A stretch of DNA of 64,000 bases. Origin: Bacillus sp. HSf4. Its GTDB lineage: Bacteria > Bacillota > Bacilli > Bacillales > Bacillaceae. The DNA lies in the NCBI RefSeq assembly GCF_029537375.1, contig NZ_CP120679.1, positions 680,001-744,000 on the forward strand. The letters are read 5' to 3'. How positions within the stretch are numbered: the stretch's first letter is position 1; each line of letters opens with the position of its first letter. This document shows, one piece after another, positions 21,658 to 22,505 of the stretch. A program made the position numbers and the translations under genes. The notes below the pieces were generated by a model that saw only the letters and a list, made by a program, of their open reading frames with translations, did not search any database and was not told where the DNA came from.

Positions 21658-21686
21658 TTGACTATTACTGCAAACAGACGTATAAT
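21658..21686 (+). promoter_or_regulatory. SigA promoter of the erm leader
   Basis: TTGACT (21658-21663), a 17-base spacer and a perfect TATAAT (21681-21686). It lies 39 bases upstream of the leader peptide start. Confidence 0.85.
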
Positions 21687-21725
21687 GCTCATGTATTTTA
21701 CACTTTTATGAAGGATTATTAAAAA

Positions 21726-21770
21726 ATGACACATTCGATGAGACTTCGATTCCCAGCTTTGAACCAGTAA
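21726..21770 (+). CDS. ErmD/ErmK-type leader peptide
   Basis: A 14-codon frame reads MTHSMRLRFPALNQ and stops at TAA 21768. It differs at one residue from the ErmD leader as I remember it (T to A at position 11). The MRLR stretch is the known macrolide-dependent ribosome-arrest motif of that leader. GAAGGA lies 10 bases before the ATG. In the intact system, stalling here by erythromycin lets RNA polymerase read through downstream attenuators into the methylase gene. Confidence 0.88.
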   Translation: MTHSMRLRFPALNQ

Positions 21771-21873
21771 TTCAATACGTTCAAAGGCTCTGTTTGTGAA
21801 TAGCAGAGTAAACGGGATCAGTCTGTCCTTTTTTACTAATCTTCATTTTTTATGAAATATATGTGATTAATGT

Positions 21874-21906
21874 AGAAAGGCGGATCGTTCTGCCTTTCTT
21901 TTTTTA
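21874..21906 (+). terminator. First attenuator of the erm leader
   Basis: AGAAAGGC (21874-21881) pairs with GCCTTTCT (21892-21899) and runs into a T tract. It lies between the leader peptide and the methylase remnant, as in the transcription-attenuated ermK locus. Confidence 0.75.
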
Positions 21907-21997
21907 TACAATTATCCCCTCTTTTGATTAGAAAAAAAGGAAGGTTTATTTGGTTTTCCCTCATTTATAAGGATGGGTTCTCTTCCCTTGTACTCTG

Positions 21998-22027
21998 AAT
22001 CGCAGGCAGACAGCCTGTGATTTTTTA
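21998..22027 (+). terminator. Second attenuator of the erm leader
   Basis: AATCGCAGGC (21998-22007) pairs with GCCTGTGATT (22013-22022) around AGACA, followed by six T residues. It ends about 20 bases before the methylase start. Confidence 0.78.
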
Positions 22028-22047
22028 TTTTGAAAGGAAGGGAAGTT

Positions 22048-22505
22048 ATGGTGAAAAAAATTCATAAGTTAGCGGAAAAAAACGAAGCTGTGGAGAATTT
22101 CTTAATTTTTCCTGACGGCATTTGATAAACGATAAAAAACTGCTTCATGAATGATAGAGCGGGCAAATGTAAGCATAAAAGGTACGGTTTTAGAGCTTGG
22201 AGCCGGAACAGGGGCTTTGACAACCATTTTAAATGAGAGAGCCGGCAAGGTTTTGGCAGTGGAATATGAACCAAAAGTTTATCGGCATTCTGAAGCGAAA
22301 AACCGCACAACATTCAAATGCGAAAATTATTCACCAAGACATTATGAACATCCATTTGCCGAATTGTCTCGAATATTCCATATCCCATCACAACACCGAT
22401 CATGATAATGCTTTATCGGCAAAATCCGGAGAGCCATGCCCCCCGGCAGATTGGCCGCTGTTAACGGAAAATATGTTTGCTGCCCCGCCAGTGTTGCGGT
22501 GTTAA
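22048..22505 (+). pseudogene. erm: Degraded erm(D/K)-type 23S rRNA adenine methylase
   Basis: The start ATG has a good GGAAGGGAAG site, but the homologous reading frame is broken several times. Recognisable pieces in order are: INDKKLLHE near 22127, ANVSIKGTVLELGAGTGALTT (SAM-binding motif I), KVLAVEYEPK, KTAQHSNAKIIHQDIM in another frame at about 22292-22345, and PITTPI (motif IV context, NIPY) near 22385 in a third. The remaining two thirds of a 287-aa Erm protein are absent. The product would have dimethylated A2058; this copy cannot. Confidence 0.85.

What the first reader, a model, noticed from the sequence alone, without database searches (positions are those of the whole stretch)
21658..22505. 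Intact erm(D/K) control region in front of a dead methylase gene
The promoter (TTGACT-17-TATAAT), ribosome site, 14-residue arrest leader with the MRLR motif, and two attenuator hairpins are all well preserved. The methylase frame has several frameshifts and lacks its last two thirds. The regulatory part has thus outlived the gene. The leader may still respond to macrolides and could influence readthrough into the region up to the DUF1796 gene.
Basis: partly seen in the sequence, partly recalled or inferred. Interest (0 to 1): 0.7.

Follow-up and report, generated by a model that had tools for sequence, protein, structure and literature searches.

The report
Dead resistance gene behind working-looking switch
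A Bacillus chromosome carries a broken second copy of a macrolide-resistance gene whose RNA on/off switch is still nearly complete; the switch belongs to a widespread family found in front of several different macrolide-resistance genes, and its survival here is best explained by the gene having died recently.

Summary
Window 21658-22414 holds an erm(D/K)-type promoter, leader peptide (MTHSMRLRFPALNQ), attenuator RNA and a broken erm remnant. About 45% of the gene is represented, not one third. The remnant matches Erm in three frames and ends before a convergent DUF1796 gene. The same genome has an intact erm with its own attenuator elsewhere.

The control element belongs to a large, covarying RNA family (22 of 38 pairs with compensatory changes in 99 sequences) without an Rfam match. 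It was found in 132 of 397 genomes sampled from the order. Downstream genes, where read, are mostly mph, msr, mef-like, erm, rlmA-type or hflX. Of 119 copies checked, six have cargo flagged as broken and four have none recognised.

'The regulator has outlived the gene' is literally true. I find no sign that selection kept it: the window copy is no better preserved than others, and its two departures from near-invariant columns each break a closing-helix pair. Folding keeps both switch states but predicts leakiness. Best reading: a recently decayed duplicate, ordinary in itself.

The parts
21658..21686 (+). sigma-A type promoter
   Evidence: consensus scan 11 of 12; the -35 TTGAC is seen in most of the 26 other aligned elements
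21711..21846 (+). attenuator RNA core: ribosome site, leader, two inner hairpins, closing helix
   Evidence: model R1 145.8 bits; fold z -6.2 for 21693-21912; covariation in 99 sequences
21726..21770 (+). leader peptide MTHSMRLRFPALNQ with stop (RLR arrest motif)
   Evidence: sequence; same peptide in three relatives with msr or mef-like cargo
21874..21907 (+). intrinsic terminator with U run; its 5' arm can pair with the core (anti-terminator)
   Evidence: folding
21997..22023 (+). second terminator-like hairpin just before the erm ribosome site
   Evidence: similar sequence in the live copy L003
22048..22414 (+). erm(D/K)-type methylase remnant, frame broken, 5' 45% of the gene
22415..22511 (.). 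junction DNA without useful similarity to the erm or DUF1796 relatives compared; holds the last codons and stop of DUF1796
22502..23176 (-). DUF1796 putative cysteine peptidase gene, convergent
   Evidence: Pfam PF08795 E 4e-37; neighbour, not part of the switch

Best explanation
This is a decayed second copy of a chromosomal erm(D/K)-type gene in an unnamed Bacillus, probably near the B. licheniformis group. The 3' half of the gene is gone, the remnant meets the end of a convergent DUF1796 gene, and its frame is broken. Its control element, of a widespread macrolide-sensing attenuator family, is still close to complete because little time has passed since the gene died and because such elements change slowly while in use, not because it has a new job. 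Inferred mechanism: with no drug, the leader and the stretch downstream fold into one closed structure and the terminator at 21874 ends transcription; with a macrolide, a ribosome stalled at the RLR codons frees the AGUCUG segment, which pairs with the terminator's 5' arm and lets transcription through. Shown here: sequences, homology, structure covariation, both predicted states. Inferred: stalling and readthrough in this strain, and that an intact erm elsewhere in the genome made this copy dispensable.
For: Intact erm (290 codons from a TTG start, 284 from ATG) with its own leader in the same genome. Broken frames and lost 3' half. Element 21710-21844: 3 private changes at 116 columns invariant in the six other sequences, versus 0-3 in those six; 2 of 93 in a 12-sequence set, versus 0-8; terminator 0 of 12 (others 0-2, and 15 of 27 in one that lacks this terminator); promoter 1 of 16 (others 1-2). 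Excess of private codon-position 1+2 changes is small. Branch lengths, window copy against live copy: control region 0.11 and 0.15, gene part 0.15 and 0.11. Structure covariation in the family. Anti-terminator pairing after a simulated stall 0.82 in the window copy, 0.43-0.83 in six relatives. A positional relative in G007 with some shared neighbours.
Against: The dating rests on few changes and five erm sequences, so a period of selection on the element after gene death cannot be excluded. The predicted leak (free-state anti-terminator 0.34, against 0.00 in four erm copies, one of them with a frame break, and one rlmA-type copy) also occurs at 0.25 in one mef element, whose gene is itself broken. 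The tree does not settle whether the window copy is nearer to the genome's other erm or to G007's (relevant supports 40-98, partitions disagree; the stretch after the terminator is 82% like G007 and 64% like the live copy, the gene part 76% and 82%). No other strain's copy of this locus was seen.
Confidence: 0.8

Rival explanations
1. Retained regulator: the element was kept after gene death because macrolide-induced readthrough makes an antisense RNA against DUF1796 or a regulatory RNA.
For: Both switch states and the arrest leader are kept; DUF1796 is convergent and the pattern scan found no terminator-like site on the + strand between 22024 and the DUF1796 stop.
Against: No excess preservation over other copies; two pairs broken in the closing helix; nothing in what I saw links DUF1796 to macrolides, though I did not search for that.
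Confidence: 0.07
2. Vacated cassette: the promoter-leader-attenuator unit is a portable module that changes cargo by recombination, and here it waits without cargo.
For: Elements 76-92% identical to the window's over 90-227 aligned bases stand before unrelated genes mef, msr and mph on plasmids; the same leader peptide precedes two msr genes and one mef-like gene; 10 of 119 elements have cargo flagged as broken or none recognised.
Against: No case was traced in which an emptied element gained a new gene; likeness may partly reflect slow evolution of a constrained RNA.
Confidence: 0.1
3. Assembly error: the gene is intact and the breaks are sequencing faults.
For: None beyond the general possibility.
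Against: Single-contig genome, 100% completeness estimate; matches in three frames, 6-9 stops per frame and loss of 55% of the gene exceed base-call faults.
Confidence: 0.02

Closest known systems
erm(K)/erm(D) attenuators of B. licheniformis
   Same: Same promoter-leader-attenuator plan; leader residues 1-8 identical to ErmDL (PMC8298421, passages). PMC4335068 (passages) calls erm(K) transcriptionally attenuated; PMC6333372 (section read) says the ermD leader may act at the translational level and holds two leader peptides.
   Different: The gene behind it is dead; I did not look for the second leader peptide; induction was not tested. The original ermK and ermD papers were not read.
Chromosomal ermD of B. 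licheniformis/B. paralicheniformis (PMC6333372, section read)
   Same: erm(D)-type gene with a long leader; absence from many B. licheniformis strains is ascribed there to deletions.
   Different: Those genes lie at one site beside a tautomerase gene; this remnant lies between an endolevanase-like gene and DUF1796.
hflXr attenuator rli80 of Listeria (PMC6310831, abstract and passages)
   Same: 14-aa RLR leader, terminator/anti-terminator choice; three of my loci have hflX as the first large gene after the element.
   Different: I did not align rli80 itself.
tlrB (yxjB) leader of B. subtilis (PMC6851288, abstract and passages)
   Same: R-X-R leader, attenuation; genes of the same broad rlmA type also stand behind this element.
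   Different: The RYR leader is shorter (9 aa) and did not stall with erythromycin; RNA homology not tested.
Mef(E)L leader (PMC4335068, abstract and passages)
   Same: MTASMRLR leader, terminator control; the paper notes its likeness to the erm(K) and msr(A) leaders.
   Different: In the passages seen the likeness is drawn at peptide level; I did not test the streptococcal element with the RNA model.

Membership tests
erm(D/K)-type macrolide attenuator | 14-codon leader with MRLR after a ribosome site | tested here: met
   the same kind of leader in 132 of 145 rows of relatives
erm(D/K)-type macrolide attenuator | conserved core RNA structure | tested here: met
   145.8 bits (the window copy is one of 19 in the model); 36 of 38 pairs standard in the window copy
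erm(D/K)-type macrolide attenuator | intrinsic terminator whose 5' arm can pair with the freed core | tested here: met
   0.82 stalled; shuffled-arm control reached it in 6 of 200; with the whole terminator present the terminator wins in both states
erm(D/K)-type macrolide attenuator | clean OFF state without drug | tested here: inconclusive
   free-state anti-terminator 0.34 in the window copy, 0.00 in five relatives, 0.25 in G008; energy model only
erm(D/K)-type macrolide attenuator | macrolide induction | not testable with these tools
   needs a reporter
functional Erm methylase | full open frame | tested here: not met
Rfam RNA family | match at gathering score | tested here: not met
   none over the element; only sub-threshold matches, best E 0.18

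The most novel reading that the evidence does not exclude
The element is one macrolide-sensing RNA cassette, a single homologous structured family, that Bacilli place in front of six kinds of resistance gene (erm, rlmA-type, mef-like, msr, mph, hflX). Copies whose gene dies stay switch-competent for a while, so the window shows a vacated but still responsive cassette open to new cargo.
Probability: 0.3. Interest if true: 0.6.

Novelty: new member of a known kind. Interest (0 to 1): 0.35.

Why it matters
The dead copy itself matters little: it shows one of two erm copies decaying in a genome that keeps an intact one, with the control RNA lagging behind the gene. The wider point is that one covarying RNA structure, with no match in Rfam 15, marks macrolide-resistance-type genes of several unrelated mechanisms across the Bacilli. 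That would make an RNA model a useful annotation tool for inducible resistance, and makes exchange of regulatory cassettes between resistance genes directly testable.

Tried and rejected
Rejected: a phage origin (no match in 50,697 phage records); a recent duplication of the genome's live erm (79% identity, long branches); an annotated Rfam element. The 84-aa broken ORF found no homologous protein, so strain spread of the broken gene could not be followed; a 99% identical relative of the intact Erm exists on five contigs, but I could not read this locus there. A tree of partitions did not settle which erm is nearest. The region between the levanase-like gene and the promoter has no useful match in six loci. 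My first labels were wrong in one respect: the Priestia genes that I called erm, and the reference erm_Pri, are RlmA-type G745/G748 methyltransferases. The 'erm only' column set therefore holds five erm and two rlmA-type elements; the codon counts use erm copies only. Partition names put the leader and gene starts one base late; no conclusion depends on it. The integrity check covers 119 loci, not the 26. Among those 26, L184 repeats L143, L178 and L191 start inside the reference protein, L174 has its msr match only 1.3 kb downstream, and none of these was followed. L116 (no cargo) is a weak, partial model match. Cargo labels are best matches to reference proteins (blastx); of the 17 mef labels, 8 are 66-93% identical to Mef(F) and 9 only about 29-33%, so those nine are mef-like transporters at most. 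Family models were run only for examples. The model was also used for fitting alignment A3, which favours the structure counted.

Literature: that the whole RNA family is not in print rests on searches of an open-access library only; the classical ermK and ermD papers were not read (one was looked up and is not held).

Full report
What is there. The + strand at 21658-21686 has a near-consensus promoter (11 of 12, where five promoter-like sites were found and 5.0 are expected by chance). A ribosome site and a 14-codon leader, MTHSMRLRFPALNQ, follow (ATG at 21726, stop ending 21770). The RNA from 21711 to 21846 folds into one closed structure: the leader's ribosome site and spacer pair with a stretch about 120 nt downstream, enclosing two inner hairpins (z -6.2 for 21693-21912). 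A strong terminator lies at 21874-21899 and a second terminator-like hairpin at 21997-22023. An erm gene would start at 22048. The remnant matches Erm in three frames, has 6-9 stops in each frame, and its DNA similarity stops at 22414. That spans about 127 of 284 codons, so a little over half of the gene is gone rather than two thirds. The next 97 bases match neither the erm nor the DUF1796 relatives compared, apart from chance-level hits. The DUF1796 gene (Pfam PF08795) runs the other way and takes its last codons and stop from this junction.

The rest of the genome. The window lies in a single-contig genome of 4,423,396 bases. The same genome holds an intact erm of 290 codons (score over the Erm family cut-off) with a complete attenuator and the leader MTHSMRLRFPTLNR. 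Over the element and the 5' part of the gene the two copies are 79% identical. Ten of 44 genomes of the genus, the window's own included, have a match to the 921-base query at E 0.001 or better; the weakest are short. G007 has an erm with one frame break next to a DUF1796 gene, with several neighbours shared with the window in a rearranged order. G027 has two erm copies about 8 kb apart, each matched over nearly its full length. None of the five named DUF1796 loci shows an erm match.

Has the control region been kept by selection? In the remnant, changes private to the window copy are 6 of 86, 6 of 93 and 5 of 44 at codon positions 1, 2 and 3; the live copy in the same genome has 5 of 85, 3 of 90 and 5 of 44. 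The gene therefore seems to have behaved mostly like a working gene until recently. In the element from 21710 to 21844 the window copy has 3 private changes at 116 columns that are invariant in six other sequences (with the window, five erm copies and two rlmA-type), and those others have 0-3. In a set of twelve it has 2 of 93 and the others 0-8; in a set of fifteen 2 of 82 and the others 0-7. Against 98 relatives it departs from two of 75 columns conserved at 90% or more; 55 sequences have fewer departures and the median is 1. Both departures break a pair of the closing helix; 16 of the 90 elements not classed as dead have as many broken pairs there or more. Nine elements with dead or missing cargo, the window's included, have on average 1.78 broken pairs in that helix against 0.74 in the other 90 (permutation p 0.036), but 2.00 against 1.22 over all pairs (p 0.12) and 3.00 against 2.76 departures (p 0.41); two of the nine drive the first difference, and some of the 90 were not checked for intact cargo. 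Nothing here asks for selection on the orphaned element, and the data are too few to exclude it.

How it would work. When the RNA is folded up to the terminator's 5' arm with the part up to the edge of a ribosome stalled at the RLR codons removed, the freed AGUCUG segment pairs with that arm: 0.82 in the window copy and 0.43-0.83 in six relatives. Shuffled arms reach the observed value in 3-28 of 200 trials, 6 of 200 for the window copy. In the unstalled RNA this pairing is 0.00 in five relatives, 0.25 in the G008 mef element (a copy with broken cargo) and 0.34 in the window copy. At equilibrium, with the whole terminator present, the terminator wins in both states in all seven, so the switch would have to be kinetic. 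That is the usual idea for transcription attenuation and is inferred here. Stalling at this leader is supported by published work on ErmDL, where erythromycin and telithromycin stall ribosomes at the Arg6-Leu7-Arg8 motif (PMC8298421, passages), and by the statement that MTHAMRLR is the shortest ErmKL that allows induction (PMC4335068, passages). The window's one difference from the common leader lies after these residues, and its exact peptide stands before two msr genes and one mef-like gene in other genomes.

The family. A distant search of plasmids gave 22 records. In the records opened, the element recurs before erm, rlmA-type, mef, msr and mph genes. In one Exiguobacterium record it lies at the record's edge with no gene shown behind it. 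A model from 19 elements found matches in 29 of 80 genomes of the family and 132 of 397 sampled from the order (E 0.001), 55 of 348 from the class (E 1e-6) and 6 of 249 from the phylum (E 1e-8, the window's own genome included). These samples overlap and used stricter filters. Best labels: mph 39, msr 33, methyltransferases 25 (15 nearest Erm, 10 nearest the RlmA-type reference after the correction), mef 17 (8 close to Mef(F), 9 only about 30% identical), one weak ABC match and four none. The weak ABC match is a sugar transporter, and one of the four 'none' has hflX, as do two others as their first large gene. So four of 119 have no recognised resistance gene (L096, L116, L133, L166) and six have cargo flagged as broken or truncated (L054, L056, L066, L071, L086, L152). 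The 26 class-level loci, one of them a repeat, all had an erm, rlmA-type, mef, msr or mph match. An R-L-R, R-I-R or K-L-R leader was read in 132 of 145 rows by an automatic pick; 13 rows had none. In 99 aligned elements 97.6% of cells are standard pairs and 22 of 38 pairs show changes on both sides; none of 500 shuffles reaches either value, and slid structures pair at 39-51%. The alignment was fitted to the model, which favours the structure. Rfam has no match at gathering score in the window other than a tRNA, and over the element only weak ones (best E 0.18).

What is known. Leader likeness between mef(E), erm(K) and msr(A) is published (PMC4335068), as are RLR attenuation of hflXr (PMC6310831) and R-X-R attenuation of tlrB (PMC6851288); of all three I saw abstract and passages. 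I found no paper that treats these as one RNA family, within the searches named in Tried and rejected. ermD is described as intrinsic to B. licheniformis and B. paralicheniformis and absent from 53 of 73 B. licheniformis strains (PMC6333372, section on ErmD).

Verdict. A new member of a known kind: a recently decayed second erm(D/K)-type copy with a nearly intact, possibly leaky attenuator. The retained-function reading is possible but unsupported. The broader RNA family is the more interesting by-product.

Noticed in passing
G000:C1:3293951-3294685 (locus L003): Intact erm with full attenuator elsewhere in the same genome.
   Followed up: yes
L023 1300-2100 (G012); L026 (G010) and L027 (G027) match the same 25 bases: An ABC-F-like gene (my reading, VmlR-like) has upstream DNA that shares a 25-base core with this element at 96%, perhaps a distant relative of the attenuator.
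   Followed up: partly
L006 (CP031730.1, Stenotrophomonas rhizophila plasmid): Element and neighbouring genes resemble those of a Lysinibacillus fusiformis plasmid (L048); probably Gram-positive DNA filed under a Gram-negative name.
   Followed up: no
L034 (G027:C8): Two erm copies about 8 kb apart, each with its own attenuator.
   Followed up: partly
window 23342-23875 -: Gene over the cut-off for ArsN1 family A (arsinothricin N-acetyltransferase), next to DUF1796.
   Followed up: no
L133 (G275:C42): Element whose leader lacks the usual stop and which runs into what looks like a transporter fragment; another orphan.
   Followed up: partly
L158, L161, L167: hflX behind the element, in two cases followed by a mef-like or mph gene.
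   Followed up: partly
window 22415-22511 and DUF1796 3' end: The DUF1796 stop lies in junction DNA, so the deletion probably changed the last residues of that protein.
   Followed up: partly
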